This document shows positions 17,060 through 63,450 of a stretch of DNA of 64,000 bases, piece by piece. The notes beneath the pieces are model-generated. The model did not search any database and was not told the DNA's origin. It saw nothing but the letters and a program-made list of their open reading frames with translations. Each line of letters begins with the position of its first letter. Positions within the stretch are counted from its first letter, which is position 1. Source of the stretch: a virus; the IMG/VR virus record IMGVR_UViG_3300017527_000643, positions 29,972-93,971 of that record; one strand, 5' to 3'. The translations under genes were made by a program, and so were the position numbers.

Positions 17060-17072
17060 AAGGTTTATATAG

Positions 17073-19171: not shown

Positions 19172-19225
19172 TTGAATATCATAGGATTTTTTATGCTATA
19201 CTCAGCCGGTAAGTTTAGCTTTTAG
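19172..19225 (+). promoter_or_regulatory. Possible promoter and GTTTAGC box before 19233 gene
   Basis: TTGAAT (19172) and TATACT (19197) are 19 bases apart, a wide spacing. Just downstream GTTTAGCTTTTAG occurs at 19213-19225; nearly the same 13-mer recurs at 39654 and 26926, also at promoters. This is the only sizeable gap (105 bases) in the late part of the tail module. Confidence 0.35.
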
Positions 19226-19232
19226 GTGAAAA

Positions 19233-20894: not shown

Positions 20895-20903
20895 AGGTAC
20901 GCT

Positions 20904-23900
20904 ATGCAAAGAACAGAATACTGGAACCAGACTCGCCCAACTGATACGCAGTTAAATTGGACTGAAACGTCCAAAACATCCGCAATTAATCAGCGATTGC
21001 GCTCATCTGCTCAGATGGGGATTGCGTGGGGATTTCAGGTAACTGTTAACTCTGTAGATAACACCAAAATTGACGTTGCCCGTGGTGAGGGCTATAGCGG
21101 TGGGGAATTCCTAATCAATGAATTCGAAACTGCAGGTTCGGGACAGCGCATTTCCACCTATACAGATACCCCTAGCGGTACTGATGATACCGGGCCTGCC
21201 GCTACCAGTCAAGGACTTGCAGATTATACTGCCGGGGTACTAAACTATGTATCTTTGGTTTATTCCGAAACTGAATCGCACCCATTGTCTGAAAGAAGCT
21301 ATCCTTTTACAAATCGGCAAACTGTTGTAACAGAGACGTTTACAGTTTCGGTGCTTACCGAAACTCAATGGAATGCTCTTGATGCAGAAGCATTGAACAA
21401 CCGGATACTCGTTGGGATCGTGACTGCACAGGGTGCAGGCACCCCGATTACTTCTGCAAATATTGAACAATTTGTCCAGCCGAAAACACTTCCTTCTTCC
21501 AGCCAGCCTTCTACAATTTCTGGTGTAACAATTGTTGGTATATCTGATGTTACGCCATTAGGAATTGGTACTCTGCGGTGGGAACCAAGTACTAGCAGTA
21601 TGTATTGGACTGCTCCAGGAGATACCGAAGGGACAGCGCTAACAATTAGCGATTCGGGCGTCTTTACCATATATTCTAACAACACGAATTATACACTAAG
21701 TCTAAATGTTGTGTGGGGGTCGTTGTCCTTAGTAGCTGCAGAAACGTCCGAAAATATTAGTATTAGATCTTTATACGGCAGAGAAATTCCTATGTTTAGC
21801 GCAACGGACCAAATCCATAGAGATATGGTGGGGTCTGGCCAACCAAGCACGACAAATCCGCACGCACTGACTTTAGCAGATATCGGAGGTGGAACACTCG
21901 ATCACGCAGATTTATTCCACGTAAATGGGATATCCAAAGATGCGGATAGTACGCAGCTTGAGTGCCAAATAGATGCGATTAATGACCGTATTCAAGTTAC
22001 GAGCTTAGGAGGATTTGAAAATAGTTTTTTGGTGGATGGTGTTACCCTTACAGAAGCTTCTGGATCAAATTATGTAAATTTTGATACGGCACCAGCCCCT
22101 GATTCGGGTGAATATTTGATCTATGTAGACAGCGCTGGCAATCTTGGAAAAGTCCAAATTGGTAATGCTTTTACTAATTTTACTAACTTAGATATATGGG
22201 ACATAAGTAACATTGTAGCTGGAACCGGAGAGATTGAATGGGATGCTACGAATGACAGAATTAGATATAAAGCTCCGGGGGATGCCGTCTGGGGTGATTG
22301 GGTTTATGTAGCAGATAGGGCACCTCCATTGACAGGTAATGGTGGTTTTTACAAAGTGTATTCTAGTACTACAGCTAATTGGATCATTCTTGAATTTTCT
22401 GGAATCATTGGTGCTTCAAATACTGAAACATTTACAGTTGTAAAGGATGAAACCAGTTATTCAGATGAATCCATGCTGAAGCTCTCCGTTGTACATTGGG
22501 ATCAGCCTACTGAGGTATTGTCCAATCTTCGTGACATTCGTAGATTTGTTACTGCAGATAACCGCACTGAGTTTGAAGAAGAACATGATGAAAATGGGCA
22601 CCATACAAAAACACTTAGAAATGGATTAGACATATACAATAGAGAAGCTAATACGTTGCTAGATGTTTATGGCGAAAGTGTTGTTGTGCGTGGAAGAGCC
22701 GTTAGCCATACGGCTGGGTATTTCTCTGCAGAAAGCACTATGGGGTTGGAAGCCCACGCAAGTGATAGCCTTGGAGCAAAAATCCACGCACCGAATTTTG
22801 GTTTGTATGCTAGCGCAGCTACTGAGACTGCTATCTATGCAACCGCCCCAAATACTGTTGTTACTGTTCTTGCAGGCACTGATACTGCAATTAGAGCATC
22901 TGCGGTGGGCAATATTGCTGGGGCTTTTATAGCTGATAATATTCGTGCAGTATACGGGTCTGCTGCGAATGAAGCATGCTATTTCTACGCTGAAACTGAC
23001 ACAGCTATTCGCGGAAATGCAAACGGTGATACAGCAATCATGGGAACTGCTGCTAATACAGCGGTCTTTGGACGAGCAGAAACACGCTACGCTGCCTATT
23101 TCTCAGCACCAAATACTGCTCTTTATGCTACTGCAGCTACGGAAGTCGCGGTAAGCGGGCTTGCTGATTCGAATGCAATTCGTGGGACAGCCGCAGATTC
23201 GTTTGGAGTGGCGGGTCTTGCTGGCGTAAAAGTTGCTGTATGGGGAAGTGCTCCTAATACAGCCGCTTCTTTTTTTGCTAATACCGCAACAGCAATTGAG
23301 GCAAACGCAGACAGGCTAGCTATTTATGCAACCGTTACAGATTCCCAAGGTATTTATGTAACAGCCCCTAATACAGCCGCTCAATTTACTGTAGAAACTA
23401 ATACGGCAGTGGATGCAGGTGCATTGGGCGAAACGGCTGTTCGCGCTGTCGCATCAGCTACTGCTATATGGGTATCAGCTACGAATGAGGGGATACGCGT
23501 TACAGCAGCAGGTGCCACTGCGATATATGCTACCGCAGGAGCCGCCTATGGTGTCGCAGCCCAAGCTAATCAACTTGCGGGCTGGTTTAATGCAAGCAGT
23601 GATTATTCAGGAAATGAGGTACTAGGTTTATATGGCGCAGCTACTAATGCAGCAGCAGGCCATGAGGAGTCTGCAATAGGTGTAAGTGGTTGGGTGGTGG
23701 GATCTTTAGCTACGGCAGTGCATGGGTCTGCTGCACATGCTTCCTATGGAACTGGCGTACTAGGGGAAGCCGGTTCTGGCAACATTGGGGTTGGTGCATA
23801 TGGTGTCTTTGGTAGCGCAGGAGTTGCTGGCATTGGTCTAGCAGGCGTTGCAGGAATTATGGGGGCATCCCTGTCCATAAGTGCCGCTAACGCTGTGGGG

Positions 23901-40125: not shown

Positions 40126-40416
40126 ATGAGAGCGCTGGCACAGGTTTCAGAAGAAGACTTTTGGAATCATGCGTATACGTTATATATTCCAAATAACGCT
40201 GCGCGTAAATGGGCCACACAGGTGCTGAAGAAATTGAATGTACAGAGACAATATATCAGTAGGCGGCACGGATATTACTTGACGGGAGATCCTGATTATA
40301 TTGCACGGTATCAGGGAATTATAAACAATGATCAGTACCGGGCATTAGCCCAGACTTATTTGCCTTACGCGCCGTATGGTGTTCAATTAGTTTGTCCTGG
40401 ATGCACTGGAATCTAA
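40126..40416 (+). CDS. Unknown small protein, perhaps leaderless
   Basis: The ATG start gives MRALAQVSEEDFW and 96 residues; the RALAQVS start resembles RVVAQVS of the 54680 protein. No ribosome site precedes it, and a TGCTATTCT -10-like sequence lies directly in front. A GTG at 40108 is the alternative start. The product has basic and aromatic segments (QYISRRHGYYLTGDPDYI) and ends with CPGC. Confidence 0.45.
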   Translation: MRALAQVSEEDFWNHAYTLYIPNNAARKWATQVLKKLNVQRQYISRRHGYYLTGDPDYIARYQGIINNDQYRALAQTYLPYAPYGVQLVCPGCTGI

Positions 40417-46323: not shown

Positions 46324-46339
46324 TCTAGGGAGTAGGTTG

Positions 46340-46708
46340 ATGTCTAAGCACCGCCTTGGAAAGAGTCTTTCGATTGACCTTTATGGCTGCAAGGGTAGTG
46401 GCTTAGACAATAAGGAATTCGTTGAAGACTTGCTTCAACACGCAGCTAAAGAAGCTAAGGCGACCGTTCTTAATATTTATGTTCATCAATTTTCCCCGCA
46501 GGGCATTACCGGAGTGATTGCGATTTCTGAAAGCCACATGGCTGTTCACACTTGGCCTGAGTACGACTTTGTTAGCGTAGATATCTATACATGCGGCGAT
46601 ATAGCTATGCCTGATAAAGCTAAAGATTATGTGATCAAAAAATTGCAACCGCAACGCCACGAGATAAAAGAACAAACTCGCGGCAATGCAATTTTTCTTG
46701 ACAAGTAG
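46340..46708 (+). CDS. speD: S-adenosylmethionine decarboxylase proenzyme
   Basis: The 122-residue protein is a bacterial-type SpeD: it carries ISESHMAVHTWPEY, where Ser65 of ESH becomes the pyruvoyl cofactor after self-cleavage, and the later DIYTCGD with the catalytic Cys. The enzyme makes decarboxylated SAM for spermidine synthesis. AGGGAGTAGG precedes the ATG. No spermidine synthase lies in the window, so the phage would work with the host enzyme. Polyamines help neutralise packaged DNA. Confidence 0.95.
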   Translation: MSKHRLGKSLSIDLYGCKGSGLDNKEFVEDLLQHAAKEAKATVLNIYVHQFSPQGITGVIAISESHMAVHTWPEYDFVSVDIYTCGDIAMPDKAKDYVIKKLQPQRHEIKEQTRGNAIFLDK

Positions 46709-50067: not shown

Positions 50068-50676
50068 ATGAAGCGGAAAGTACCATGGATAGATTTTATT
50101 ATGCACGGCTCATTTACGTTACTTGGGCTGCTTGGTGTAATTTGCGTTTTAGTTTTTGATTATTCTATCGGTGCGATGATCGCATCATCGAGTGCCTTCC
50201 TTGGATTCCTGATTGTATTTATAGTTGTATTTTTCAGATGGGAATCGTCTGAACCAGACTATATCACTAAGCATGGGACCGCTGTTTGGACTGATGGATT
50301 ACCAATAATTGATAGAGAACGGATGGAACAAGCATTAGATTTTTACATAAGAAAGTTACCTTCCTACGCTTCTCAGGTAGAAATCTCTACCGAACAATTG
50401 GAATATATGCTGAAGGGTGCACAAATCGAATGGAGCAGAAAGAAGATCAGTGCAATTGGCATTGGTTGGCAAGTGAAAGATAAAGCAGGATTGCAAAGTG
50501 GAAAAGCAATAAAGGTATATTGGTCTGGATCAATTGTAAATTCTGCCTTGTACCACGAATTGCACCATATGGTGGATGAAATAGTTATTGGACTACCGCC
50601 AGATTACAAGCACGAGCGTACAGGGTGGTGGTCTATTATTCCTGCGTTGAAAAAGGATTTTGGGAGTCAAACATAA
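50068..50676 (+). CDS. Membrane protein with HExxH zinc-protease-like motif
   Basis: The 202-residue protein has two membrane segments (about 12-31 and 33-57) and a cytoplasmic or periplasmic domain with YHELHHMVDE (about 161-170). HELHH fits the HExxH zinc site, with an additional downstream acidic residue. It has no clear ribosome site and its expected transcript starts near the ATG. Its stop overlaps the start of the 50676 gene (TAATG). Protease activity is possible but not certain. Confidence 0.55.
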   Translation: MKRKVPWIDFIMHGSFTLLGLLGVICVLVFDYSIGAMIASSSAFLGFLIVFIVVFFRWESSEPDYITKHGTAVWTDGLPIIDRERMEQALDFYIRKLPSYASQVEISTEQLEYMLKGAQIEWSRKKISAIGIGWQVKDKAGLQSGKAIKVYWSGSIVNSALYHELHHMVDEIVIGLPPDYKHERTGWWSIIPALKKDFGSQT

Positions 50677-52817
50677 TGAATAAATCTGCGCGATATGGGA
50701 GTGGTATAGAAACCCAGGTATTAGAAGATATTTATGAATTGACGTACAAGCTGCAAATGCTCAACCAGGAAGAGAAGCGCGGAGATTACGGACTTCCCCA
50801 ATCACTTCCTGATCGGGCTTACATTGAAAAATCAAAAATAGAAACACAATTGTCAAAGAAACTAAGTGAAGTTCATGAAAGAATGGTAGAAGTCTATGAT
50901 GATTGGATTAGCGATCATGCCCCAGACCCAAGCCATTTTTCTGAGCAGGCATACGAATATTGGGGCGAGCGCCGGTATGAAGCAGAACACGGATACGGGC
51001 ATTTGGGGGATGTCGCAGATCTATTTGGAGACAATGATGTATTAGAAACTGTCGTGGAATTTGTGCAAGATTTACGTTCAGAAGAAGAGGAGGAAGAAGA
51101 AGTTGAAGAGGAAGATCCTTATGATGCGTGGATCAAATATTTAGATTCAATCAAAGCTAAAAAAGCCCAGCAACAAGAATTTGAATTTATGGAGTCTCCT
51201 GAGTTTGTACCTACTGAAGTTGAAGAGGTTGAACCGGAAAAACCTCTTGAAGAAATGACCATCGAAGAACTGGCAGAATTAGAAGAAGTCAAAGAGAACT
51301 TATCAGATGTCCTGGATGAAATTGAAAAACAAAATTACTTTGATACTTTTATAGAATGGCAAATAGAAGCAGAACAGGAACAATTCGAGGATGATGGGCC
51401 ATATGCTGATGTAAAGGAAATGCGGTCAGCTATGGATGAATGGGATAGTTTATCCCTTAGTGACAGAATCATATTGTTCCAAGAAGCGCTGACCACCATG
51501 CACAACAGCGGCGAAATGGCTCAATATCTTTTGGATGATGAGAACGCTGTAGAAATTCTAAACCAGTTGTCGGCTGGCCCCCATGTAGAAGAATGGGATT
51601 ACGATTTGTCCAAGATGTTGGGCTATCCACTAGGCTCTAAACTAGCGCCGACGCAGGAGTGGTTCGTGCCTGCAGCACTGAAACACCTAGCTGCAGCAAT
51701 TCTGGCGCTTGAACGCCCAGGGGAAACTATAACTCCTGAAGATTTAAAACAGATTTATGAGGGAACTTACAAACTACAAATGTTAGATCAGGAAGAACAA
51801 TTAGGAGAATATGGGCTTCCTAAACAACTGCCTGATAGAGCTTATATAGAAAAATCAAGAGTAGAAACTCAATTAGCGAAAAAGTTGGATGAAGTTTATT
51901 CTTCAGTAATTGAAGCTTATGATTATTGGATTTCTATACACGATTACCCTATTGATTGGGCGGTAGAACAGGTTCAACAGTTTTGGAAGAACGAAATACG
52001 TTTTTCAATTGAGGATCAGTATCAAGGTCTTAATCTCATTTTTAGTATATTAGATAGAGATGAGGTTATGGGAACTATAAGAGAATTTATAAAAGAAAAA
52101 ATAGCCCAAGGAGATGATACTTTAGTATCAGTTCTTGAATACGCAGGAAAATCTTTAGAAGAAATAGCTTATGAAGACGTTTCTGAAGCGCTTGCTCCGT
52201 ACACGTCCGAACTTCTTGATAGGATTGAGCAGGAAGAGTATTTTGTAAGATCCCTAGCAGACGAGGCAGAAAAGGATCTGCAAGACGAACACGAAGGAAG
52301 TGCCTTGGGTGCAATTAAGCAAATGAGGGCCGCGCTTGACGAATGGAATCAGCAAGATATTAGCGGTAAGATCATATTGTTCCAGGAAGCTTTGACTACA
52401 ATGCACAACAATTCCGAAATGGCCAATTATATTATTAAACACCAAGCTCCTATACAGCTTTTAAATGAATTATCACAAGGCCCAGATGTTCCCCAATGGG
52501 ATTACGATCTAACTAAATTGCTAGGGCATCCTCCTGGGTCTACTATAGCTCCAAAGGAACAGCAGTGGTTCACGCCCGCTTCCTTGAGGGGCATCTCCAG
52601 AGTTATTGCTATGCTTACTGGAGGCGGTATGGAAAAGGTAGCTGTGATTAGAAAGTGCAAGAAAGGTGATTCCGAAGAAGGGAAACCGTGGTGTCTCTAC
52701 ACGCATGATGGGTCTAGATTGCTTGGTAGGCATCCTTCCAAAGAATCTGCGGTCAAGCAGGAACAGGCAATAAAAGCACAGGGCAGGCTAGCAAAAGTTA
52801 TTGCAGTACTCAGGTAG
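50676..52817 (+). CDS. Duplicated modular acidic protein
   Basis: The ATG at 50676 follows GGGAG. The 713 residues consist of two copies of one long unit: module A at about 16-75 and 370-430 (LPDRAYIEKSKIETQL versus LPDRAYIEKSRVETQL) and module B at about 265-350 and 575-655 (IILFQEALTTMHN in both). Single copies lie in the 48457 protein. Between them are acidic stretches. The C-terminal 50 residues form a further small domain (KPWCLYTHDGSRLLGRHPSKESA) seen in other phage proteins, and it ends RLAKVIAVLR. A virion-internal or scaffold role is plausible but not shown. Confidence 0.6.
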   Translation: MNKSARYGSGIETQVLEDIYELTYKLQMLNQEEKRGDYGLPQSLPDRAYIEKSKIETQLSKKLSEVHERMVEVYDDWISDHAPDPSHFSEQAYEYWGERRYEAEHGYGHLGDVADLFGDNDVLETVVEFVQDLRSEEEEEEEVEEEDPYDAWIKYLDSIKAKKAQQQEFEFMESPEFVPTEVEEVEPEKPLEEMTIEELAELEEVKENLSDVLDEIEKQNYFDTFIEWQIEAEQEQFEDDGPYADVKEMRSAMDEWDSLSLSDRIILFQEALTTMHNSGEMAQYLLDDENAVEILNQLSAGPHVEEWDYDLSKMLGYPLGSKLAPTQEWFVPAALKHLAAAILALERPGETITPEDLKQIYEGTYKLQMLDQEEQLGEYGLPKQLPDRAYIEKSRVETQLAKKLDEVYSSVIEAYDYWISIHDYPIDWAVEQVQQFWKNEIRFSIEDQYQGLNLIFSILDRDEVMGTIREFIKEKIAQGDDTLVSVLEYAGKSLEEIAYEDVSEALAPYTSELLDRIEQEEYFVRSLADEAEKDLQDEHEGSALGAIKQMRAALDEWNQQDISGKIILFQEALTTMHNNSEMANYIIKHQAPIQLLNELSQGPDVPQWDYDLTKLLGHPPGSTIAPKEQQWFTPASLRGISRVIAMLTGGGMEKVAVIRKCKKGDSEEGKPWCLYTHDGSRLLGRHPSKESAVKQEQAIKAQGRLAKVIAVLR

Positions 52818-54679: not shown

Positions 54680-55174
54680 ATGAAACGTATGCGTGTAGTA
54701 GCCCAGGTGTCCCCCATTGAAGCAGCGCTTTTTGAACTGCATAAAGTATTAGATCAGTTCTTTAAGCAAAAAGAAAATATAATCTATGGAACGCTTTATC
54801 TCCATGATGGTTCAACCGACATGGGATATAAAGCACCGTGGGGGGAATACGAAGAAGAAATAGATGTTGAGGTTAACGTAAAATTCACCCATGATGGGGA
54901 CGATTCCTTTATTGAGATTTTGTTTGGCCGTTCTGGTATCGGCGGCATATACGGTGCTCAGTCAGATGACGGAAACATAGAATTCATTATAGATATTGGG
55001 TCTGATGAAGAAACTGTTGGGACTTCTGCGATACCATTGGAAGCAGTTGCTAAAAACGTTTATGATAAAATAGAAGAATCAGACTTACCAGATGAGCACG
55101 CAGTTGACCGTGCGCAAGATGCTTACGATTCTGCGCAAGAAGATAAATGGGATTCACGGCGGGACGACTATTAA
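54680..55174 (+). CDS. Tagged protein MKRMRVVA-1, unknown
   Basis: The start is the ATG after CAGGAGAATATA; it gives MKRMRVVAQVSPIEAALFEL, the N-terminal tag found on six proteins in 54-63.5 kb. The remaining 150 residues form an acidic alpha/beta domain (about 30-130, GTLYLHDGSTDMGYK and FTHDGDDSFIEILFG) and an acidic helical end. No named family recognised. The tag suggests shared targeting or processing with the other five. Confidence 0.65.
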   Translation: MKRMRVVAQVSPIEAALFELHKVLDQFFKQKENIIYGTLYLHDGSTDMGYKAPWGEYEEEIDVEVNVKFTHDGDDSFIEILFGRSGIGGIYGAQSDDGNIEFIIDIGSDEETVGTSAIPLEAVAKNVYDKIEESDLPDEHAVDRAQDAYDSAQEDKWDSRRDDY

Positions 55175-55187
55175 CTGGGAGTACCTA

Positions 55188-55601
55188 ATGAAACGTGTGC
55201 GTGTTGTAGCACAAATGTTAGCTAAAGATAAAATTGTTTTTCATTTGAAAAGCGCTATCCTAATATTAGGGGGACTGAAAGACCATGCTAAAACTGAATT
55301 GGGATTAGCTGGGCTATTCGATAAAGATAGTGATTATGATGGTATGATTGGTAAAGCAGTTATGGAATTAGTAGATACATTTGCTTCACAGGGCCATAGC
55401 GGATTTAGCGCCCAATGGGTATTAGAAGTATTTAATGAAGTAGCCCAATTCAAACCGCTTACGCCCATAACCAGTAATTCAGATGAATGGGAAGATGTAG
55501 CACGTTATGGAGATGGTAGTCCTCTTTGGCAGAATAAACGAGCACCAATGTACTTCAGTGAGGATGGTGGTAAAAATTGGTATGATGTAAACGAAATATA
55601 A
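55188..55601 (+). CDS. Tagged protein MKRVRVVA-2, unknown
   Basis: The ATG follows TGGGAGTACCTA. The 137-residue protein begins MKRVRVVAQMLAKDK, the same tag with Met4 changed to Val. The last 40 residues (NEVAQFKPLTPITSN, then PMYFSEDGGKNWYDV) resemble a C-terminal motif of other phage proteins. It is coupled in an operon with the 54680 gene. Confidence 0.65.
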   Translation: MKRVRVVAQMLAKDKIVFHLKSAILILGGLKDHAKTELGLAGLFDKDSDYDGMIGKAVMELVDTFASQGHSGFSAQWVLEVFNEVAQFKPLTPITSNSDEWEDVARYGDGSPLWQNKRAPMYFSEDGGKNWYDVNEI

Positions 55602-55612
55602 TAGTTTTGTAG

Positions 55613-55699
55613 TATAATGGATCTAGGGCTGGATAAGCCAGTCCTATAAACCGGTGTCGATTCGGGTATAAACTCGCGTCGATCCTGAAGGAGGAAGTC
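55613..55699 (+). promoter_or_regulatory. Promoter and structured leader of the 55700 gene
   Basis: TATAAT at 55613-55618 has no clear -35. The RNA would start near a nine-pair stem TAGGGCTGG/CCAGTCCTA (55624-55646, one G-U) with loop ATAAG, followed by a CGGGT/ACTCG hairpin (55663-55676). GGATC (55619) also pairs with GATCC (55681). GGAGGA precedes the start. This is a folded leader of about 75 bases. Confidence 0.55.
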
Positions 55700-56542
55700 A
55701 TGATGAAGGTTACTAGCGATCTGTTTCAACTCAAAGTTCTCGTTAACTCCAAACCAATCCAGGAATATCACAAGGATTCCAAGACCTTTGTGGAAGGGCG
55801 GCAAGGTTCGAATTTTGAACTGCTGCTGAAAAACCTTACTCCACGCAGGTTATTGGTACACCCTACCGTGGATGGCTTGTCAGCTATGACAGGCAAGGAA
55901 GCCTCCAGGAACGATTACAGCGAAGGGTACGTACTGAACCCCTTCCAGGAGATGTCTGTACCTGGCTGGAGGCTCGACAACGAGTCTGTGGCCCGTTTCC
56001 TGTTCGCTGGTGAGGGCAGAAGTTACGCAGAGCAGACAGGACAGCCGAAGAATAAGGGAGTCATAGCTGCAGCAGTCTGGGAAGAACGCATACCTACTTG
56101 GCAGTCGAAAGTAATGTTCAATATTGAAACATCGGACTCTATTACATTTACAGATGGCACAGACAATGCCGATCCAGTCGGTGGCATCTATAATGTAAAC
56201 ACTGAGCCTGCATCTCATGGTGGGGAAGAACTGACCATTGGTAGTCTTTACACGCCAGAGCGTGGCGAAAAGCTTTCTAGGGGGCGAAAGCGCCGGGTAA
56301 GCACAAAGAGTGTAAATAACCTGGGAACTGGTTTTGGCAAGAAAGCAGACCACAACGTAATGACAGTCAAGTTTGAAATCAACCAGGCTGAACCGGATGC
56401 TATTGCCGTTATTTACTATGATGACTTCAGGGGGCTAGCAACGCGAGGGATAAAAATAAGCAGAAAGCCCCAAAGTGACAGCCTTCCTAACCCGTTTCCC
56501 AAGGATACGGGGTGTGTTCCGCCGCACGGTTGGCGCGGCTAA
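55700..56542 (+). CDS. Conserved unknown protein with structured leader
   Basis: The ATG at 55700 (a second at 55703) follows AAGGAGGAAGTC. The 280-residue product starts with a beta part (KVLVNSKPIQEYHKD, FVEGRQGSNFELLLKN) and has LVHPTVDGLSAMTGKEASRN and GYVLNPFQEMSVPGWRLD, a pattern that I have seen in unnamed phage and bacterial proteins. The C-terminal 100 residues are Gly-rich and less ordered. The strong ribosome site and folded leader suggest high or controlled expression. The function is unknown. Confidence 0.6.
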   Translation: MMKVTSDLFQLKVLVNSKPIQEYHKDSKTFVEGRQGSNFELLLKNLTPRRLLVHPTVDGLSAMTGKEASRNDYSEGYVLNPFQEMSVPGWRLDNESVARFLFAGEGRSYAEQTGQPKNKGVIAAAVWEERIPTWQSKVMFNIETSDSITFTDGTDNADPVGGIYNVNTEPASHGGEELTIGSLYTPERGEKLSRGRKRRVSTKSVNNLGTGFGKKADHNVMTVKFEINQAEPDAIAVIYYDDFRGLATRGIKISRKPQSDSLPNPFPKDTGCVPPHGWRG

Positions 56543-56558
56543 TCTGTCAAGAAATTAG

Positions 56559-56590
56559 TTTACAAAACTAAACATGGTCCTTACTATACT
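56559..56590 (+). promoter_or_regulatory. Promoter with TTTACAAAACTAAAC start
   Basis: TTTACA is followed after 17 bases by TACTAT and after 20 by TATACT. It shares the 15-base TTTACAAAACTAAAC with the promoters at 53050 and 24386. Confidence 0.65.
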
Positions 56591-56607
56591 GGCAGGAGGT
56601 AGGGTCC

Positions 56608-56802
56608 ATGTTTTGTCTAATCTGTTGCAAGCAAATCGATCCAGGCCAACACACCTGCGGTAATTCTTACTGCCAGGAAGCTGACTTCTTCTTCCACCGG
56701 GCCAGAAACTCCAGAAAGAACAGCAAGAAACAGCGGGAAGCGTACAACCATGCGCTGAAGGTTGCCGCCATCCGACATAAACAGGTAGCTCGGCACGCCT
56801 AA
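56608..56802 (+). CDS. Small zinc-binding-like protein
   Basis: The 64-residue product has CLICCKQIDPGQHTCGNSYC at its N-terminus, a dense Cys pattern, then a basic helix (RNSRKNSKKQREAYNHALK). GGAGGTAGGG precedes the ATG. Probably a nucleic-acid-binding zinc protein. Confidence 0.55.
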   Translation: MFCLICCKQIDPGQHTCGNSYCQEADFFFHRARNSRKNSKKQREAYNHALKVAAIRHKQVARHA

Positions 56803-56824
56803 TTTAGTATAATGAAAAGAGATA

Positions 56825-57112
56825 ATGGCTAGACGCCTAAAAACTTTAGCTAAAGAGATAAACGACACGCTTCCTGGTTACACAGCGGAGATTGTCCAAG
56901 GCTATTGCAACACAGACCGAAAGATTGCAGGCACACGCCTACGTTGGGAAGGCAAAGGAAGGGAAGGAAATAGGCTTATCGTAAAGAATTCAAAAGGCGA
57001 AGTTGTGTTCGATCACAATTCCGCTGAAACATACAGATGCAACGAAGAAGTGGAAGAATGGGTCAAGTATGTAAAAGAGCATGGCAAACCTTATAATCCG
57101 TTTGAAAGGTAA
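56825..57112 (+). CDS. Unknown small protein with very short leader
   Basis: The ATG lies about five bases after the expected start of transcription from TATAAT (56808-56813), so the leader is nearly absent. The 95-residue product has an N-terminal basic helix (MARRLKTLAKEINDT) and a beta part (GTRLRWEGKGREGNRLIVKN). No family recognised. Confidence 0.5.
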   Translation: MARRLKTLAKEINDTLPGYTAEIVQGYCNTDRKIAGTRLRWEGKGREGNRLIVKNSKGEVVFDHNSAETYRCNEEVEEWVKYVKEHGKPYNPFER

Positions 57113-57115
57113 ATA

Positions 57116-57589
57116 ATGGCTAAAAAAATTGTAATGAAAAAGCATTTTGTAACCTTTCTTAGCCCTGGAACGTTCTTCAATGAACAGTCTTCAAAAGAAG
57201 TAAAAAAGTGGGATGTGGTCAAGGCAGTCAAGATGGCCGATACTGTTTTGGAACGCCATGGAGCTACACCCTATGCATTTTATTTCTCCACACAAGGGCG
57301 CGGCGCTAAGGATTTGAACAGCAAAGAAATTGACCGAAGCCCAACGTATTTCCTGGGAGGAAAGATCGAAACGTTGGAAGAAGTAGAAGCACGCAATGCC
57401 CCTGACGAAAAAATTTTACGGTCTAACATGCGGGGCAACAACTACCATAAAATCATAATAAATAACAACTCTTGGAAGATTACAGTTCCATTTAACGAAG
57501 ACGAGGGCGATGTACTTCTGGATTACATTCCTCCGAGGGACAGAAATGAAAAAAAGAAAGCCAAAAGAAGTAAAAAAAGCAAAGCCTGA
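57116..57589 (+). CDS. Conserved small phage protein
   Basis: The 157-residue protein resembles an unnamed phage family with a FVTFLSPGTFFNE start, YAFYFSTQGRG, then YFLGGKIETLEEV and ILRSNMRGNN. The C-terminus is Lys-rich. It follows the 56825 gene by three bases and overlaps the next gene. Function unknown. Confidence 0.6.
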   Translation: MAKKIVMKKHFVTFLSPGTFFNEQSSKEVKKWDVVKAVKMADTVLERHGATPYAFYFSTQGRGAKDLNSKEIDRSPTYFLGGKIETLEEVEARNAPDEKILRSNMRGNNYHKIIINNNSWKITVPFNEDEGDVLLDYIPPRDRNEKKKAKRSKKSKA

Positions 57590-57713
57590 ACAGACTGAAC
57601 CCGACTGGACCAAGAAGTGTATTGTCTGTGGGGCAACTCCTATCGTTCCTATGACGGAGATGTGCGGGCCGTGTACTTTTGGAGAGGCTGAAACCGCAGG
57701 AGGAAATTGGTGA
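57546..57713 (+). CDS. Small zinc-ribbon protein overlapping the previous gene
   Basis: The ATG after GAGGGACAGAA gives 55 residues: a basic start (MKKRKPKEVKKAK) and two Cys pairs (CIVC, CGPC) typical of a zinc ribbon. It overlaps the upstream gene by 44 bases in another frame. The good ribosome site and Cys pairs support it. Confidence 0.6.
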   Translation: MKKRKPKEVKKAKPEQTEPDWTKKCIVCGATPIVPMTEMCGPCTFGEAETAGGNW

Positions 57714-57720
57714 GGCGCAA

Positions 57721-57894
57721 ATGACAGAAAAAAACTTAGCTAAAATTTTGGTAGATAATGTTTCCACAGCCATGCAGCGCGAAAAGATGCTGCGTGATGT
57801 CGTCATGATCTTTATGGATAAGATAAAGGAATACAAAATCGAATTGACCGAAGAAGAGAAGTTGAAGATTCAAAAACTTCTGACAATGGAATAA
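57721..57894 (+). CDS. Unknown 57-residue helical protein
   Basis: The protein is one long helix with charged residues (REKMLRDVVMIFMDKIKEYK). GAGG lies about nine bases upstream. The next gene starts three bases after the stop. Confidence 0.5.
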   Translation: MTEKNLAKILVDNVSTAMQREKMLRDVVMIFMDKIKEYKIELTEEEKLKIQKLLTME

Positions 57895-57897
57895 GCC

Positions 57898-58350
57898 ATG
57901 GGCGATCCCACAAAAGAACTTGAAACAATGATGATGCTTGGGCAGATAGCAAAAACTATGCTCGAAGCCCGACAAGCTGAATTCCATAAGTCCAATCCAC
58001 ACATGAACGAAGCTGAATCCAAAGCAGCGGATTTACTTCAGAGCATGGTGCAAAAGAAATTCGATCAGATTATAGAAAAGAACAAAAAGGAAGGCTTTGA
58101 CTTTAGTGGAATGGATGTGCTGGAGTTACGGCTTTGGGCACCTGATGCTAAATGTGTGTTGATGCAGTTGCATGATTACCTCATGAAGGAATATGGGTTG
58201 TTCCACCACGTCGCACTTTCATCCGGGATAGTTATGATTGCTAAAGATAAACTGTTCTTCATCAGCCTGGTCATAAAGAAAATGAGCCAGGAAGATTTGT
58301 TCGGAGACAAAGATGGAATGCCCACTGTGCAAACTGGAAAAGAAGACTGA
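57898..58350 (+). CDS. Unknown helical protein
   Basis: The 150-residue product is helical in the first half (DPTKELETMMMLGQIAKTM) and alpha/beta in the second (VLELRLWAPDAKCVLMQLHDY). It overlaps the HIT-like gene by 38 bases. No family recognised. Confidence 0.5.
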   Translation: MGDPTKELETMMMLGQIAKTMLEARQAEFHKSNPHMNEAESKAADLLQSMVQKKFDQIIEKNKKEGFDFSGMDVLELRLWAPDAKCVLMQLHDYLMKEYGLFHHVALSSGIVMIAKDKLFFISLVIKKMSQEDLFGDKDGMPTVQTGKED

Positions 58351-58585
58351 TTGGTATTTTGAAAACGTGATGCTCGCAGTGCTTGAATGTAAAACCTGCA
58401 ACCTTCCCATGGTCGTGCTCAAACGGCATACCATGGAGCCAACAGCTAAAGAAGAGAAGGCTATGATTAGGGAGCTAACCAAGGTTGCAGACGCCTTCTT
58501 TGATGAAGGCAACTGGGCGCTAAGGAAGTATCAGCGCAACATCAAGGACCACCTTCACTTCCACGCTATCCCCAATAGGAGCTAA
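58313..58585 (+). CDS. HIT-like nucleotide-binding protein
   Basis: The 90-residue protein has CPLCKLEKKTDWYFEN at its start (zinc pair), then NLPMVVLKRHTMEPTAKEE, and KDHLHFHAIP (about 78-87), the H-x-H-x-H histidine triad of HIT hydrolases or transferases on nucleotides. It is a short version. It overlaps the previous gene and precedes TAAACAATG. Confidence 0.75.
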   Translation: MECPLCKLEKKTDWYFENVMLAVLECKTCNLPMVVLKRHTMEPTAKEEKAMIRELTKVADAFFDEGNWALRKYQRNIKDHLHFHAIPNRS

Positions 58586-58588
58586 ACA

Positions 58589-58939
58589 ATGGAAGAATGG
58601 GCGAAGGAATGGCAAGAGGGTGATCCAGACTTCGATGAAGAATCCATCGAATGGCTAAAGAAGCGCCCTTCATCTATAACGAAGTTGCTAATAAGGTTCC
58701 CACCCTCTTGTTTGGTCCAGGCAAACAGAACCCTAATGTGTCCTGCTCCTGGGGAAACAGGCATTGTAACGAGCTATTTTGAACCGGATGATGAGCATCC
58801 TGAAGGAATGGTGTCTGTTAGGAACCACGGCACAGATACACCAGTTAAGGCGCAATGTGAACCTGTATGGCTCAATGTTGTTGGCTACCATAGGGGCATC
58901 ACCCCTGAAGTAGTCAAAAAATTATTGGGGGAAGAATAA
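58589..58939 (+). CDS. Unknown small protein
   Basis: The 116-residue product has an acidic N-terminus (DPDFDEESIEWLKKRP) and a beta-rich C-terminal half (GETGIVTSYFEPDDEHPEG). AGGAGCTAAACA precedes the ATG. No family recognised. Confidence 0.5.
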   Translation: MEEWAKEWQEGDPDFDEESIEWLKKRPSSITKLLIRFPPSCLVQANRTLMCPAPGETGIVTSYFEPDDEHPEGMVSVRNHGTDTPVKAQCEPVWLNVVGYHRGITPEVVKKLLGEE

Positions 58940-58942
58940 AGA

Positions 58943-59182
58943 ATGCACAAAAGAAAAAGAGGCATTAGATCATCAGCGCGTGAATTAGTAGATGAACAAG
59001 CTAAGAAACTTCGTAAACAAAAGCGCCCATACGCGGTAGGTCCAGCCGTCATAACCTTTCCTGGCTGGATGGTCATTCCGCTTCTTTGGGGCGCAATGGA
59101 AATGCTAAGAATGCCAGCGTTCCAGACATGTAAAGAATACATTATAGAAACGCAGAAACTATATAAGAAAGGTAAGGACTAA
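58943..59182 (+). CDS. Unknown small basic protein
   Basis: The 79-residue product is basic at both ends (MHKRKRGIRSSARELVDE) with a central hydrophobic segment (AVITFPGWMVIPLLWGAMEML, about 34-55) that could span or touch the membrane. It follows by three bases. Confidence 0.45.
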   Translation: MHKRKRGIRSSARELVDEQAKKLRKQKRPYAVGPAVITFPGWMVIPLLWGAMEMLRMPAFQTCKEYIIETQKLYKKGKD

Positions 59183-59185
59183 ACA

Positions 59186-59404
59186 ATGGAATGCGCTGAA
59201 GGGTGTGAATGTAAATATGTGTTTGCTCACTGTGCAAATTGCCTAAAGAGCAATGAGCCGTCTGGTGTGATGGTTATGCTAATGTTTGACACCACTGTAG
59301 AAGCATATTGCAGGGTGTGCGGTTTACCGGTTTGGAGCCTTACAGGAGATTTTCACTTTGCTAATCTCCAGGAGGCAGAAGAACCGGGTGCACTAAAGCA
59401 TTAA
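59186..59404 (+). CDS. Small Cys-rich protein
   Basis: The 72-residue product has CAEGCEC, CANC and CRVC; the last two pairs are spaced like a zinc ribbon. AGGACTAAACA precedes the ATG. Likely zinc-binding; function unknown. Confidence 0.55.
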   Translation: MECAEGCECKYVFAHCANCLKSNEPSGVMVMLMFDTTVEAYCRVCGLPVWSLTGDFHFANLQEAEEPGALKH

Positions 59405-59414
59405 GGAATAAACA

Positions 59415-59606
59415 ATGACAGACGCGGAAAAGTATAAGCTACACAACCTTTGCTACCAGGCTAAGCTAGGAAAACCTATTAGTGAAGAAGACAGCAAATG
59501 GCTAAGAAAGATGTATAAGGCACACCCAGAAGAATATAAGGTGGTTCATAGAAAAGCTGCTCAAGAAGCAATAGATACCGTCAATCCTTTCGCTAACAGA
59601 ACCTAA
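59415..59606 (+). CDS. Unknown small helical protein
   Basis: The 63-residue product has a helical DAEKYKLHNLCYQAKLGKPI start and a basic middle. AAGGAATAAACA precedes the ATG. No family recognised. Confidence 0.5.
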   Translation: MTDAEKYKLHNLCYQAKLGKPISEEDSKWLRKMYKAHPEEYKVVHRKAAQEAIDTVNPFANRT

Positions 59607-59638
59607 ACAATTTAGTCCCTCCTGGGCTATGCTATACA
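59603..59638 (+). promoter_or_regulatory. Possible promoter with CTAAA-CAA-TTTAG palindrome
   Basis: CTAAACAATTTAG (59603-59615) precedes TATGCTATACA (59628-59638), like the site at 54424. No classical -35 is present. Confidence 0.45.
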
Positions 59639-59653
59639 GCCAGGAGGGTACCG

Positions 59654-60001
59654 ATGAACATCCACGCCCAAAAAGCCATTCTACGCATCTCTAAATGTAC
59701 GAAAATGCTGGCAGATGAAGTGTATCGTCCTGATAAGCATGGGCGTCCTGAAGCATTAGAGATAGCAACTCAAATAGACGATAAATTTGTTGATATCCTG
59801 GAGCTAATAAATGAATTATTAGAGCTAGGCAAATTTGAGCTAAATGATCCTGCATCAGAAGAGTTGGCAGATACGCTTTTCAAGATTACAGAATACGCGC
59901 TTGAACATGTAGAAGCATTTTTAGGGAAAAGTAAACAAAGATCAATAGAAGACATTCCTGATGAAGAACTTGCTGAATCCATTGACTGGATTCAGGAATA
60001 G
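59654..60001 (+). CDS. Unknown helical acidic protein
   Basis: CAGGAGGGTACCG precedes the ATG. The 115-residue product is all helical (KAILRISKCTKMLADEVYR, LEIATQIDDKFVDILELIN). It opens the last operon, which carries four of the six tagged genes. Confidence 0.55.
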   Translation: MNIHAQKAILRISKCTKMLADEVYRPDKHGRPEALEIATQIDDKFVDILELINELLELGKFELNDPASEELADTLFKITEYALEHVEAFLGKSKQRSIEDIPDEELAESIDWIQE

Positions 60002-60012
60002 GGAGCAACCTA

Positions 60013-60276
60013 ATGACGCATAAACAGGTTACGAAGCCGCTGTTCAAGAAGACTGCATATGATCCTGTAGAGGAAGCAGAAACTAAAAGTAAACAAGAAC
60101 TGCTGCTGCAGATGATCGATTATAAATATACAAATCCTAAACAAGCTATTGGTGATCTTGTTGAGTCAATGACCAGTGAGGATTTGGACATCTGGCTTTA
60201 TGAACTAAAGAAAGAACTGGATTGGGACAATATAGATTCAGACCCCTCCCACGCACCGGATGGAAGTGACCAATGA
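60013..60276 (+). CDS. Unknown small acidic protein
   Basis: The 87-residue product is helical and acidic (EAETKSKQELLLQMIDYKYTN). GGGAGCAACC precedes the ATG. Its stop overlaps the start of a tagged gene (ATGA), so translation is coupled with it. Confidence 0.5.
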   Translation: MTHKQVTKPLFKKTAYDPVEEAETKSKQELLLQMIDYKYTNPKQAIGDLVESMTSEDLDIWLYELKKELDWDNIDSDPSHAPDGSDQ

Positions 60277-60647
60277 AACGCATGAGAGTGGTGGCGCTAA
60301 CCCGCGAAGAGCTACGAGAAATGGCATTAGAGGATATCCGGGAAACAGACGGCGATTGGCACCAGCGATACACTCAAGCTAAAGGCTTAGTGGAAGATCA
60401 CATAGCTAATGAGCTAGATGAAAAGCTCGCCAAGCTTCATGATCAAATGGCCCACCTTGAAGACCAGCGCCAAGAACTACTAAACTCGCTAGCTGATGAA
60501 GATTGGGAAGCGTTCAATAAAATTCTTCCCCAGAATCTTGTAAACGAGCTTACCTATTTCAATTCTGATCAAGCTATCGAAGACCGCGTACAGGAAATAT
60601 TGAGTGGTGATCTTGATCGTTGGGATGATGAAGTACCACCCGAATAA
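60273..60647 (+). CDS. Tagged protein MKRMRVVA-3, helical
   Basis: The 124-residue protein begins MKRMRVVALTREELREMALE. After the tag it is almost wholly helical, with a coiled-coil-like middle (ELDEKLAKLHDQMAHLEDQR) and an acidic end. It is translated together with the 60013 gene. No named family recognised. Confidence 0.65.
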   Translation: MKRMRVVALTREELREMALEDIRETDGDWHQRYTQAKGLVEDHIANELDEKLAKLHDQMAHLEDQRQELLNSLADEDWEAFNKILPQNLVNELTYFNSDQAIEDRVQEILSGDLDRWDDEVPPE

Positions 60648-60650
60648 ACA

Positions 60651-61208
60651 ATGAAACGAATGCGGGTCATAGCGACTAAGCTTCGCGTAGAGTCTTTAGC
60701 ACTCAAAGATTATAATCAGGAATATGTGGACGATCCTGACTTTGTTGGGTTTCACTGCCAGCAAAATGAAAGAAGCAAATACGATGACTTCATTGGAGCA
60801 CAGTACGGGGGTGTGGAAGGTGGCCAGAACTACCTGATACATATCCTGGATGGCTTGTATGACGATATGCGCGACGAGGCAACGGAACTAGGATTGATGG
60901 ACACACCAGACAATCCTTATGACGATGACTATGAAGAGTGGGCGAACAAAGTAGAAGACTTCCTGGCATCCAAAAACATAAAGTGGATCTTCGTATCCGA
61001 AACCAAACCGCTCTCATCCTCTGGTGAAACCTACGGCGGCTATGGCGACAACTGCTACTATGTAATGCTCCCGCAAGATCTTATCATAACCGAATTTCAT
61101 GATGTCGGAGTGAACGATGCGGCTATGGCCTATGTGTACGACGCAAACAAAGGGCAACCTAAACTTATAGAAGTTGAAGAGCAGGAATCCGAAGACGCGG
61201 AATGGTGA
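60651..61208 (+). CDS. Tagged protein MKRMRVIA-4, unknown
   Basis: The 185-residue protein begins MKRMRVIATKLRVESLALKD. The body has FVGFHCQQNERSKYDDFIG (about 27-45), KWIFVSETKPLSS (about 111-123), GDNCYYVMLPQDLI and a HDVGVNDAAMAYVYD segment. The order of a His segment, an S/E segment and a late beta part loosely recalls ART-like folds, but this is weak. The upstream junction is TAAACAATG. Confidence 0.6.
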   Translation: MKRMRVIATKLRVESLALKDYNQEYVDDPDFVGFHCQQNERSKYDDFIGAQYGGVEGGQNYLIHILDGLYDDMRDEATELGLMDTPDNPYDDDYEEWANKVEDFLASKNIKWIFVSETKPLSSSGETYGGYGDNCYYVMLPQDLIITEFHDVGVNDAAMAYVYDANKGQPKLIEVEEQESEDAEW

Positions 61209-61209
61209 A

Positions 61210-63207
61210 ATGAAGCGCATGCGTGTTACAGCACTCTCTGTCAGAGCACAATACCTGTACCACGTTACAGATAGCAAGAACCTCCCCGACATAGCAGCCG
61301 AAGGATTGGCGATTGAAGAAGGTGGCGCACTCTCTAAAGGCCAGCATAAAGAATACTCGCAGGATAAGATCTTCCTTACAGATAAAGACACCATTCCCAA
61401 TTGGGAATATTATGTAAAGGAAATGACCTACCCGGACGACGACCCAGCCGTGCTAAGAGTAAACACCGATTACCTGGAAGAGATCCTGGTGGATGAAAAG
61501 GGTACGCATGACGCTCCTAAACTGATACCATTTGATTACAACAAACCAAGATTCCTGCCTGACCCAGACCCGACCACGTTTTCTTATTATACGGAAGAAA
61601 ACATTCCACCTGAAGCTATAGAAGTGCAAACCCCTGAAGGATGGGTCGCACTAGCAGCCCACCAGATACGTGCGTTCGAATGGCTGAATTACGTAGCTGA
61701 TGTGATACCGGGCGAAGTAGAAGCAGAGCGCATTATAGAAAAGATGGTGGTAAACATTGCCGACAAAATTGGTATAGATAAAGAGTCACTGGCGACTGAG
61801 CAAAAGAATACCACTTCAATTTTGTCAAAAATAGAGAACATGTTTGAGACTAACCCAGAGGCATTCGATAGGCTTTTGGAAAGTTCATTTTCTGCAGCAC
61901 AGCCAGACGATCCGACCCAGTTTGAATTGCCACCAGATGTACGTAACCTATTAGACCCTGCTCATTGGGAATTTCTTACAGAGGAAGACCCACGTCCAGA
62001 AGAAGATGAAGAAGAACCACCAAAAGTAAAGAAGCCGCCAGAAGTAAGGAAACCACTAGAAGTAAAGAAGCCAGTAAAGCGGAAGAAACAAGAACCCAGA
62101 TCAATCTATGATGAATTTGGTTTAGGTACGCCAAAAGACCAACCCAAGAAACCTGTTGAGCCTTCCAGCGTTCCTAAATGGGAACCGCTGGTAGAACAGC
62201 CTAAAAAGAAACCTAAAGAAAGAAAAGTCAAAGAAAAGGAACCTAAAGTAAAGGAACCAAGGCCCCCTAAAAAGCGGACGCCTAAGAAGCACCCCCCTGC
62301 TCCCCCCAAGCCTTACCCGAATTTAATTCCTATGGAAGAGCCACCGGAATCAGTACGGGAAAGCGAATTCTGGCGCGATGATGTGCGGGATGTTCTTAAA
62401 AGTAAATATATCGATCCTGTTGCTGCTCCCCAGGTAATAAACTTTATGTTTTATGTGGTGGAGCAAACCCATCCCGCACCCAGTTATGAGGCGCTGAAAA
62501 ATGAGATAGACTTTCTCTATGCATATCAGCCCGAAGAGTTTACTGAAGTACTAAACACTTCCATTGAGATGTACGAGAAAGAGCAACAGTTTGGACATGT
62601 AATAGAAAGACCTGAAGCAGAACCATTGGGATTTAAAGATTACTTTGAACTACCTGACGTTGAACTTGGCGAACCTGAAGATCCACTAAAGGGCGTTCAG
62701 GTTTCAGAAGAGCTTAAAAAGTATTTGAGAACTCCTATAGATGAGCTTATCCCATATACAGGACCACCAATTTCGCAGAGGAGTAATCAAATAAAGAGAA
62801 TGAGAACCAGGGCAGAAGCAAACCTCCAAACTAAACTCATCCAACTGAAACCACAAATGGCGAACGCTGCCCAGAAAGTTTACGACGAATGGGAACAAGA
62901 CGAAGAAGGCATCGATGAAGTGTTTGGTGCTGGTGGTCCATGTGATCAGATAGCAGATGCAATAGCAGGAGTCATAGTAGACAACATAGATGTAAACATA
63001 ACCGAAGGTGGTCATGAAGGCGACGACCATGCCTGGACCATAGCGTACACAAACACTGAAGCTTATGGAATAGACATCCCTCCAGAAACCTACGAAGAAG
63101 GTGGAGGCTATCGCTGGACTAAACTGAAGGATGTAAAGTTTACTCCAGAAGATGTAGAAATATTTCCACTGCATGAATTCTTGGAAGATATACTTGAGGA
63201 GGAATAA
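61210..63207 (+). CDS. Tagged multidomain protein: ART-like domain, linker and fused tagged domain
   Basis: The ATG at 61210 gives MKRMRVTALSVRAQYLYHVTD and 665 residues. Residues 17-155 are an ART-like domain (LYHVT, GLAIEEGG, IFLTD, PAVLRVN, FSYYTEENIPPEAIEV, GWVAL), parallel to that of the 48457 protein. A helical part (about 155-265) is followed by a Pro/Lys linker (about 265-375), another helical part, and at residue 528 an internal tag, IKRMRTRA. The last 135 residues form a separate domain with CDQIADAIAG, GDDHAWTI and YGIDIPPETYEEGGGY, suggesting a Cys/His/Asp triad. The DNA around 62778-62802 looks like a lost gene junction. Confidence 0.65.
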   Translation: MKRMRVTALSVRAQYLYHVTDSKNLPDIAAEGLAIEEGGALSKGQHKEYSQDKIFLTDKDTIPNWEYYVKEMTYPDDDPAVLRVNTDYLEEILVDEKGTHDAPKLIPFDYNKPRFLPDPDPTTFSYYTEENIPPEAIEVQTPEGWVALAAHQIRAFEWLNYVADVIPGEVEAERIIEKMVVNIADKIGIDKESLATEQKNTTSILSKIENMFETNPEAFDRLLESSFSAAQPDDPTQFELPPDVRNLLDPAHWEFLTEEDPRPEEDEEEPPKVKKPPEVRKPLEVKKPVKRKKQEPRSIYDEFGLGTPKDQPKKPVEPSSVPKWEPLVEQPKKKPKERKVKEKEPKVKEPRPPKKRTPKKHPPAPPKPYPNLIPMEEPPESVRESEFWRDDVRDVLKSKYIDPVAAPQVINFMFYVVEQTHPAPSYEALKNEIDFLYAYQPEEFTEVLNTSIEMYEKEQQFGHVIERPEAEPLGFKDYFELPDVELGEPEDPLKGVQVSEELKKYLRTPIDELIPYTGPPISQRSNQIKRMRTRAEANLQTKLIQLKPQMANAAQKVYDEWEQDEEGIDEVFGAGGPCDQIADAIAGVIVDNIDVNITEGGHEGDDHAWTIAYTNTEAYGIDIPPETYEEGGGYRWTKLKDVKFTPEDVEIFPLHEFLEDILEEE

Positions 63208-63210
63208 ACA

Positions 63211-63450
63211 ATGAAACGCATGCGAGTAGTAGCCTACCAACCGCAGGCTAAAGTCATCGTGGAATGCTCACACTCTGGGGCCGAAGCACTTCAAGCTCTG
63301 ATTGAATATATAAAGTCAAACGGCAACACCGGACACTCCTTTTCTATCATCGTAGACCCTGATGACAAAGATGCCAACGAATCATTCGGCTGGGACGGTG
63401 ACGGATCAGACAGCATCGGGGATATCAAAGTAGAGAACCTGGAGGACTAA
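63211..63450 (+). CDS. Tagged protein MKRMRVVA-6, unknown
   Basis: The 79-residue protein begins MKRMRVVAYQPQAKVIVECS. The rest is a small alpha/beta domain with SGAEALQALIEYIKS and FGWDGDGSDSIGDIKVEN. GAGGAGGAATAAACA precedes the ATG. No family recognised. Confidence 0.65.
   Translation: MKRMRVVAYQPQAKVIVECSHSGAEALQALIEYIKSNGNTGHSFSIIVDPDDKDANESFGWDGDGSDSIGDIKVENLED

What the first reader, a model, noticed from the sequence alone, without database searches (positions are those of the whole stretch)
54680..63450. Six unrelated proteins share an N-terminal MKRMRVVA tag
The genes at 54680, 55188, 60273, 60651, 61210 and 63211 start with MKRMRVVA, MKRVRVVA, MKRMRVVA, MKRMRVIA, MKRMRVTA and MKRMRVVA, while the rest of each protein differs. 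The DNA of the tags differs at silent positions (CGT, CGC and CGA for Arg; GTA, GTC and GTG for Val), so the peptide is conserved and not the DNA. Phage T4 uses N-terminal targeting peptides to pack internal proteins into the head. A similar capsid-targeting or processing signal is my best explanation. I know of no described tag with this sequence.
Basis: partly seen in the sequence, partly recalled or inferred. Interest (0 to 1): 0.9.

Follow-up and report, generated by a model that had tools for sequence, protein, structure and literature searches.

The report
Shared N-terminal tag on phage effectors
Six otherwise different proteins of an uncultured phage, one of them an inhibitor of a bacterial immune system, begin with the same eight-residue peptide, and the related signal in sister phages sits exactly where their giant multi-part proteins join, so it is probably the address label that packs host-takeover proteins into the phage head.

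Summary
In detail: six genes (54680, 55188, 60273, 60651, 61210, 63211) start MKR[MV]RV[VIT]A. The chance expectation is 0.002 genes. The tag DNA differs mainly at third codon positions and the flanking DNA is unrelated, so the peptide is what is conserved. A seventh copy, IKRMRTRA (62791), lies inside the 61210 protein at a module junction.

The window is the end of a 94-kb virus record that also encodes a head maturation protease. One tagged protein is a Tad3-family Thoeris inhibitor; every Tad3 relative whose N-terminus I could read lacks the tag. The module behind the internal tag is 59-61% identical to a module of a 4,132-residue ART-PolyVal polyvalent protein in an unrelated phage. Sister phages lack MKRMRVVA but carry a shorter core, [LMF]R[VI]xA[SQT], at the start of accessory proteins and at module junctions of multidomain proteins. 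In one case it begins, after a single residue, where two stand-alone homologues stop.

Best reading: a capsid-targeting and/or processing signal for virion-delivered effectors, working like T4 CTS peptides but with a new sequence. Packaging and cleavage are inferred. The head proteins' own candidate cleavage motif, [KR]TA|[SQA], is offset from the tag by one residue. New variant of a known kind.

The parts
54680..54703 (+). N-terminal tag MKRMRVVA
   Evidence: translation
54680..55174 (+). tagged protein 1, 164 aa, no family match
   Evidence: no relative in viral contigs
55188..55211 (+). N-terminal tag MKRVRVVA
55188..55601 (+). tagged protein 2, 137 aa: Tad3-family Thoeris inhibitor (domain aa 30-132) behind the tag and about 20 further extra residues
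   Evidence: Pfam PF25185 E 2.8e-32; PDB 9b7d Tad3, weak; untagged relatives
60013..60276 (+). upstream gene of the same tight gene cluster; no tag, but N-terminus ...PLFKKTAYD resembles the head-protein motif KTA
   Evidence: sequence; role inferred
60273..60296 (+). N-terminal tag MKRMRVVA
60273..60647 (+). tagged protein 3, 124 aa, start overlaps the preceding stop
60651..60674 (+). N-terminal tag MKRMRVIA
60651..61208 (+). tagged protein 4, 185 aa, no family match
61210..61233 (+). N-terminal tag MKRMRVTA
61210..63207 (+). tagged protein 5, 665 aa, multi-module: YLYHVTDSKNL..GL module (ADP-ribosyltransferase-like by eye only) related to the C-terminal module of 48457, charged linkers, then an internally tagged C-terminal module
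   Evidence: fold not confirmed
62791..62814 (+). internal tag copy IKRMRTRA (ATA in place of ATG) at a module junction
62791..63204 (+). C-terminal module, 59-61% identical to a module of a 4,132-aa polyvalent protein, where it follows KTAAIASKQA instead
63211..63234 (+). N-terminal tag MKRMRVVA
63211..63450 (+). tagged protein 6, 79 aa
48457..50022 (+). probable relative of the same class: starts MKKLA; its homologue in sister phage G006 starts MRILA; C-terminal module related to that of 61210
50676..52817 (+). multi-module protein with two copies of the 48457 N-terminal domain; RVIA in a linker (ISRVIAML); no N-terminal tag

Best explanation
MKR[MV]RVxA is an N-terminal address peptide that puts accessory host-takeover proteins into the prohead of this phage, so that they enter the cell together with the DNA. 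It is probably also cut, most likely after the final Ala, when the head maturation protease matures the prohead. The tagged genes are stand-alone versions of the kind of module that other phages string together in polyvalent proteins. In sister phages a shorter form of the same signal, [LM]R[VI]xA[SQT], marks both N-termini and module junctions; in this phage a further copy sits at a junction inside the 61210 protein. Shown: the conserved peptide, its absence from Tad3 relatives, its position at module junctions, the protease gene in the same record. Inferred: packaging, ejection, cleavage, and that one signal does both jobs.
For: (1) Selection on the peptide: differences fall mainly on third codon positions and flanks are unrelated. 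(2) Cargo type: tagged protein 55188 is Tad3; in another phage Tad3 is a module of a 789-aa protein with an SLT transglycosylase and a GNAT-like domain, a polyvalent-type architecture. (3) Tad3 relatives whose N-termini could be read start at the domain (MSLVQHAKEEL, MGNLTDHAKYEL) or have it embedded in a larger protein; none has the tag. (4) The module behind the internal tag is 59-61% identical to one in the 4,132-aa ART-PolyVal protein of G015; there the same junction carries KTAA, and [KRV][TV]A[ASQ] occurs 9 times against 1.2 expected in the 3,721 residues examined. (5) Sister phages: [LMF]R[VI]xA[SQT] 13 against 1.7 expected. In G001 protein 16716...KIEG-N-MRIEAQ begins one residue after the point where stand-alone homologues L112 (...KIAG*) and L114 (...KVEG*) end. 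G003 6144 has internal LRVEATEVLAQTS where G001 14461 starts MRVEASKVLAQTS. (6) A head maturation protease is present (E 1.1e-37). Head proteins of the family are enriched in [KR]TA[ASQ], 31 against 5.1, with no enrichment elsewhere (10 against 10.7), including protease FYKTA|Q, portal RRTA|Q, scaffold PPKTA|S and MCP VERTA|S. (7) The protease and an unrelated zinc-ribbon protein beside it share a similar N-terminus in these genomes (MPFYKTAQTPIV and, in G000, MTFHKTGISPIE): a second shared N-terminal peptide in the head cluster. (8) Precedent: the first 10 residues of T4 IPIII suffice for packaging and T4 Alt has a 7-residue propeptide (PMC9026906); the first 30 residues of P1 DarB suffice (PMC9024508).
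Against: No virion proteomics. The tag end (R at P4, V at P3, A at P1) and the head-protein motif ([KR] at P3, T at P2, A at P1) are off by one residue, so cleavage by the same protease is not shown. Proteases of T4, phiKZ and SPN3US cut after Glu (PMC5694885), and the tag has no Glu. Neither candidate motif has an experimentally mapped cleavage site here. The accessory-gene class was drawn partly after seeing the motif; the unclassified count does not depend on it, but its regex was also chosen after inspection. Four of the six tagged proteins have no family match, and the tagged genes lie far from the head genes. The exact tag is known from one virus record only.
Confidence: 0.6

Rival explanations
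1. The peptide is only a proteolytic processing site (head protease or a host protease) at the start of each module. Packaging is determined elsewhere, and N-terminal copies are remnants of junctions left when a polyvalent gene was split.
For: The core recurs at internal junctions, and polyvalent junctions in G015 carry KTAA. The internal copy at 62791 looks like a gene start fused in frame (ATA for ATG).
Against: A bare cleavage site would not need the conserved MKR in front of RVxA in all six genes. At an N-terminus, removing 8 residues has little purpose unless the peptide did something first.
Confidence: 0.2
2. The tag addresses proteins to another phage structure or complex (a replication compartment, the portal or scaffold, the tail) and has nothing to do with ejection.
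For: Only position and cargo speak for ejection; a basic-hydrophobic octapeptide could bind many partners. Nothing in this record was shown to encode or exclude a compartment.
Against: Tad3 and polyvalent modules are proteins useful at the moment of entry, and the family has a head with a maturation protease and candidate cleavage sites.
Confidence: 0.1
3. Recent copying of one 5' gene segment, or a nucleotide-level element (translation enhancer, recombination linker), produced the shared starts without a peptide function.
For: Two tags (54680, 63211) differ at only two of 24 bases, and AAA-rich early codons can help initiation (general knowledge).
Against: Third-position divergence with conserved residues, and flanks at random identity. 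The codons for the same Arg residue at position 5 include CGT, AGA, CGG and CGA.
Confidence: 0.05

Closest known systems
T4 capsid targeting sequence (CTS) on internal proteins IPI, IPII, IPIII, and the Alt propeptide (PMC9026906)
   Same: Short N-terminal peptide, a few to about twenty residues, shared by otherwise different proteins, some of them anti-restriction or ADP-ribosyltransferase effectors; head protease in the genome; poorly conserved cargo.
   Different: Sequence unrelated, no Glu at the end, different head protease family; no packaging or cleavage data here; the related core also occurs at internal module junctions.
P1 DarB N-terminal packaging signal (PMC9024508)
   Same: N-terminal signal on an ejected anti-restriction protein, sufficient in P1 for a reporter.
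   Different: 30 residues on one protein; here 8 residues repeated on six proteins.
Polyvalent proteins (Iyer et al. 2017, PMC5512222)
   Same: A module shared with an ART-PolyVal multidomain protein; multi-module proteins in the same window; predicted delivery with the DNA.
   Different: Here several small proteins are separate genes, each with its own tag. The paper proposes release by embedded peptidases; I found no mention of a short junction peptide in the passages read.
N-terminal propeptides of phiKZ/SPN3US giant phages (PMC5694885, PMC10052503)
   Same: Head and ejection proteins with N-terminal propeptides removed by a phage protease; two SPN3US paralogues share an identical 15-residue N-terminus.
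   Different: Cleavage after A-X-E there; the tag has no such motif, and here the cargo proteins are not paralogues.

Membership tests
T4-type capsid targeting sequences | short N-terminal peptide shared by otherwise different proteins | tested here: met
T4-type capsid targeting sequences | directs proteins (or a reporter) into the prohead | not testable with these tools
   needs fusion and virion assays
T4-type capsid targeting sequences | removed by the prohead protease at its cleavage motif | tested here: inconclusive
   protease gene present; tag end RVxA resembles but is one residue out of register with the head motif [KR]TA[ASQ]
T4-type capsid targeting sequences | cleavage after Glu, as stated for T4 and giant phages in PMC5694885 | tested here: not met
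   no Glu in MKR[MV]RV[VIT]A; so it may work like a CTS but is not filed as a T4 CTS
phiKZ/SPN3US propeptides | A-X-E before the cut | tested here: not met
   tag sequences; motif from PMC10052503
Polyvalent proteins | modules homologous to polyvalent-protein modules | tested here: met
   62791-63204 is 59-61% identical to a module of the G015 protein that matches ART-PolyVal at 4.2e-45; shown for this module only
Polyvalent proteins | two or more distinct domains in one chain | tested here: inconclusive
   met by eye for 61210 and 50676; the other five tagged proteins are small
Polyvalent proteins | delivered with the DNA | not testable with these tools
   needs proteomics
Tad3 (anti-Thoeris) | Pfam PF25185 domain above gathering score | tested here: met
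   111.4 bits against 27, only for 55188
Tad3 (anti-Thoeris) | inhibits Thoeris | not testable with these tools
   needs a plaque assay

The most novel reading that the evidence does not exclude
Polyvalent proteins of these phages are capsid-processed polyproteins: a short address/cleavage peptide (RVxA[SQT] or KTA[ASQ] type) stands before each module, and phages move effectors between fused and stand-alone form while keeping the peptide, so that reading the peptide alone predicts the ejected arsenal, including anti-Thoeris proteins.
Probability: 0.35. Interest if true: 0.88.

Novelty: new variant of a known kind. Interest (0 to 1): 0.7.

Why it matters
How ejected effectors are chosen for packaging is known for only a few phages (T4, P1). 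If the tag is the address, ejected immune-evasion proteins of uncultured phages could be listed from sequence, and the open question of how multi-module polyvalent proteins are released gets a direct test: do virion peptides begin right after the junction motif. It would also mean that an anti-Thoeris protein acts from the moment of entry and not only after expression. A new targeting peptide would add a delivery tag to the T4 and P1 tools used in laboratory phage work.

Tried and rejected
Exact-tag search in IMG/VR gave no convincing second case, and the tag pattern was absent from 14 related records. Relatives of 54680 and 60651: none. MCP relatives in GTDB genomes: none, so no host. 61210, its C-terminal module and 48457 in named phages: none. 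AlphaFold2 of two modules gave pLDDT 54 and 32, too poor to use; no fold search was run. Pfam did not confirm the ADP-ribosyltransferase reading of 61210, so it is by eye only. I first took RVxA and KTA as one protease motif; the per-position count shows different registers, so I keep them apart. A looser count of A[SQ] sites with basic residues was too common to use. The idea that each G015 module start has a motif upstream is only weakly supported (5 of 14 against 1.6, P 0.015). A paper search for Tad3 with Thoeris returned nothing, so the Tad3 function rests on the Pfam and PDB labels.
Full report
Check of the observation. Six open frames at the stated coordinates start MKR[MV]RV[VIT]A. The expectation from shuffled N-terminal columns is 0.002 genes. 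The 24 bases are 78% identical on average, while the flanking 30 bases are at 33% and 25%. Differences at codon positions 1, 2 and 3 are 18, 5 and 57 of 105. The peptide is therefore conserved, not the DNA. Apart from the tag the six proteins show no convincing similarity. In the nine other phage contigs scanned the same way, no comparable set of short shared starts on unrelated proteins appears, except a pair in G001, MRVEASEVLA and MRVEASKVLA; a strong triplet in G013 (MKNKKKTEVN) was not examined further.

A seventh copy. Inside the 61210 protein, after a proline-rich linker region, stands IKRMRTRA (62791), with ATA where a start codon would be. It looks like a tagged gene joined in frame to the one before it. 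The module that follows has one relative in IMG/VR, L128, in a phage without a detectable relative of this MCP. There it is part of a 4,132-residue protein with about ten YH[GVY]T-type modules; the 3,721 residues scanned match Pfam ART-PolyVal at 4.2e-45. In that protein the module is preceded by KTAAIASKQA. [KRV][TV]A[ASQ] occurs 9 times against 1.2 expected in those 3,721 residues. In that genome [KR]TA[ASQ] is 12 against 1.0 in head/polyvalent genes and 2 against 1.7 elsewhere.

Genome context. The window is the end of a 93,971-bp virus record. Upstream lie portal, amidase, head maturation protease (phrog_18299, 1.1e-37), a scaffold-like protein and the major head protein (phrog_2522). The nearest named relative by MCP is Virus Rctr197k (44%), followed at 25-28% by Salmonella phage Sen-NF, Dickeya AD1 and Erwinia giant phages.

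Cargo. Tagged protein 55188 is a Tad3-family Thoeris inhibitor, weakly matching the solved Tad3 9b7d. Its domain starts at residue 30. Relatives start right at the domain or carry it inside larger proteins, and none whose start could be read has the tag; L015 has Tad3 between an SLT transglycosylase and a GNAT-like domain. The 61210 protein begins, after the tag, with YLYHVTDSKNLPDIAAEGL, related to the C-terminal module of 48457. It reads like an ADP-ribosyltransferase, but neither Pfam nor modelling confirmed this. The remaining tagged proteins are unknown.

Sister phages. Contigs sharing the head genes (G001-G008) lack MKRMRVVA but carry [LMF]R[VI]xA[SQT]: 13 copies against 1.7 expected over G000-G008. 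Copies of the core are at N-termini (G001 MRVEASEVLA, MRVEASKVLA, MSNKFRVEAQ; G002 MRILAQ; G006 MRILAK, the homologue of window 48457, which starts MKKLA) and inside multidomain proteins (G001 16716 three times, G002 13000 twice, G001 63012, G004 40845, G003 6144). In G001 16716 a zinc-binding module is flanked by SLRVEAL and NMRIEAQ. Stand-alone homologues L112 and L114 end at KIAG* and KVEG*, aligned to KIEG just before N-MRIEAQ. G003 6144 carries LRVEATEVLAQTS internally where G001 14461 begins MRVEASKVLAQTS. The signal is therefore portable between gene starts and junctions.

Link to the head. In the head genes of G000-G008 [KR]TA[ASQ] is found 31 times against 5.1 expected, and outside them not above background (10 against 10.7). 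The sites include protease residue 5, portal residue 38, the C-terminal part of the scaffold, and MCP residue 82 (VERTAS), in a conserved island between less conserved stretches. I infer that this is the head protease's cleavage motif. The tag end, RVxA followed by Q, S or T in several cases, is similar but has its basic residue one place further out, so identity of the two is not shown. In addition the protease and a neighbouring zinc-ribbon protein share a similar N-terminus in these genomes, another shared N-terminal peptide in this head cluster.

Mechanism. Most likely: the tag binds the growing scaffold/core, carries the effector in, and is cut off at maturation; the effector leaves with the DNA and acts at once. 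This is how T4 internal proteins work (first 10 residues of IPIII, 7-residue propeptide of Alt; PMC9026906) and, for targeting, P1 DarB (first 30 residues; PMC9024508). Polyvalent proteins are proposed to be packaged and released by embedded peptidases (PMC5512222). The junction peptides seen here suggest a simpler or additional route through the head protease. None of packaging, cutting or ejection has been shown for this phage.

Membership. It works like a CTS but is not a T4 CTS: the sequence is unrelated and the Glu-based cleavage rule of T4, phiKZ and SPN3US (PMC5694885, PMC10052503) is not met. Verdict: a real, peptide-level signal of a known kind in a new form. Confidence in the delivery reading is 0.6.

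Noticed in passing
G015 (L128/L129-L130), 8669-21067: A 4,132-residue polyvalent protein with about ten ADP-ribosyltransferase-type (YHGT) modules, plus 2'-5' RNA ligase-like and NUDIX matches; many junctions carry KTAA-like peptides.
   Followed up: partly
G000 about 8565-8830, beside the protease gene (also G001-G008): A small zinc-ribbon protein beside the head protease has nearly the same N-terminus as the protease (MTFHKTGISPIEEI against MPFYKTAQTPIVSV).
   Followed up: partly
L015 8630-10996: A Tad3 domain sits inside a 789-aa protein with SLT transglycosylase and GNAT-like domains, which suggests virion delivery of an anti-Thoeris protein in another phage.
   Followed up: partly
window 6478-7392 (-): A protein resembling DHH-type phosphoesterases by eye is encoded on the opposite strand within the baseplate genes; reversed genes at the corresponding place occur in G002-G005.
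   Followed up: no
window 46337-46708: Reads like a small S-adenosylmethionine decarboxylase (ESHMAVHTWPE), unusual cargo for a phage; by eye only.
   Followed up: no
L049 (G001) 11001-12875 (-): An apparent intein interrupts a protein in the accessory cluster (CNCLTEDTKIPLLDGKTVSMKEL ... HNCPAYLWHGS); by eye only.
   Followed up: no
window 40126-40416: A 96-aa protein starts MRALAQ, close to the MRILAQ and MRVEAQ starts of sister phages; a possible further degenerate member.
   Followed up: no
window 50676-52817: A protein with two copies of a domain starting IYE[LG]TYK and a C-terminal KPWCLYTHDGSRLLGRHPSKESA motif.
   Followed up: no
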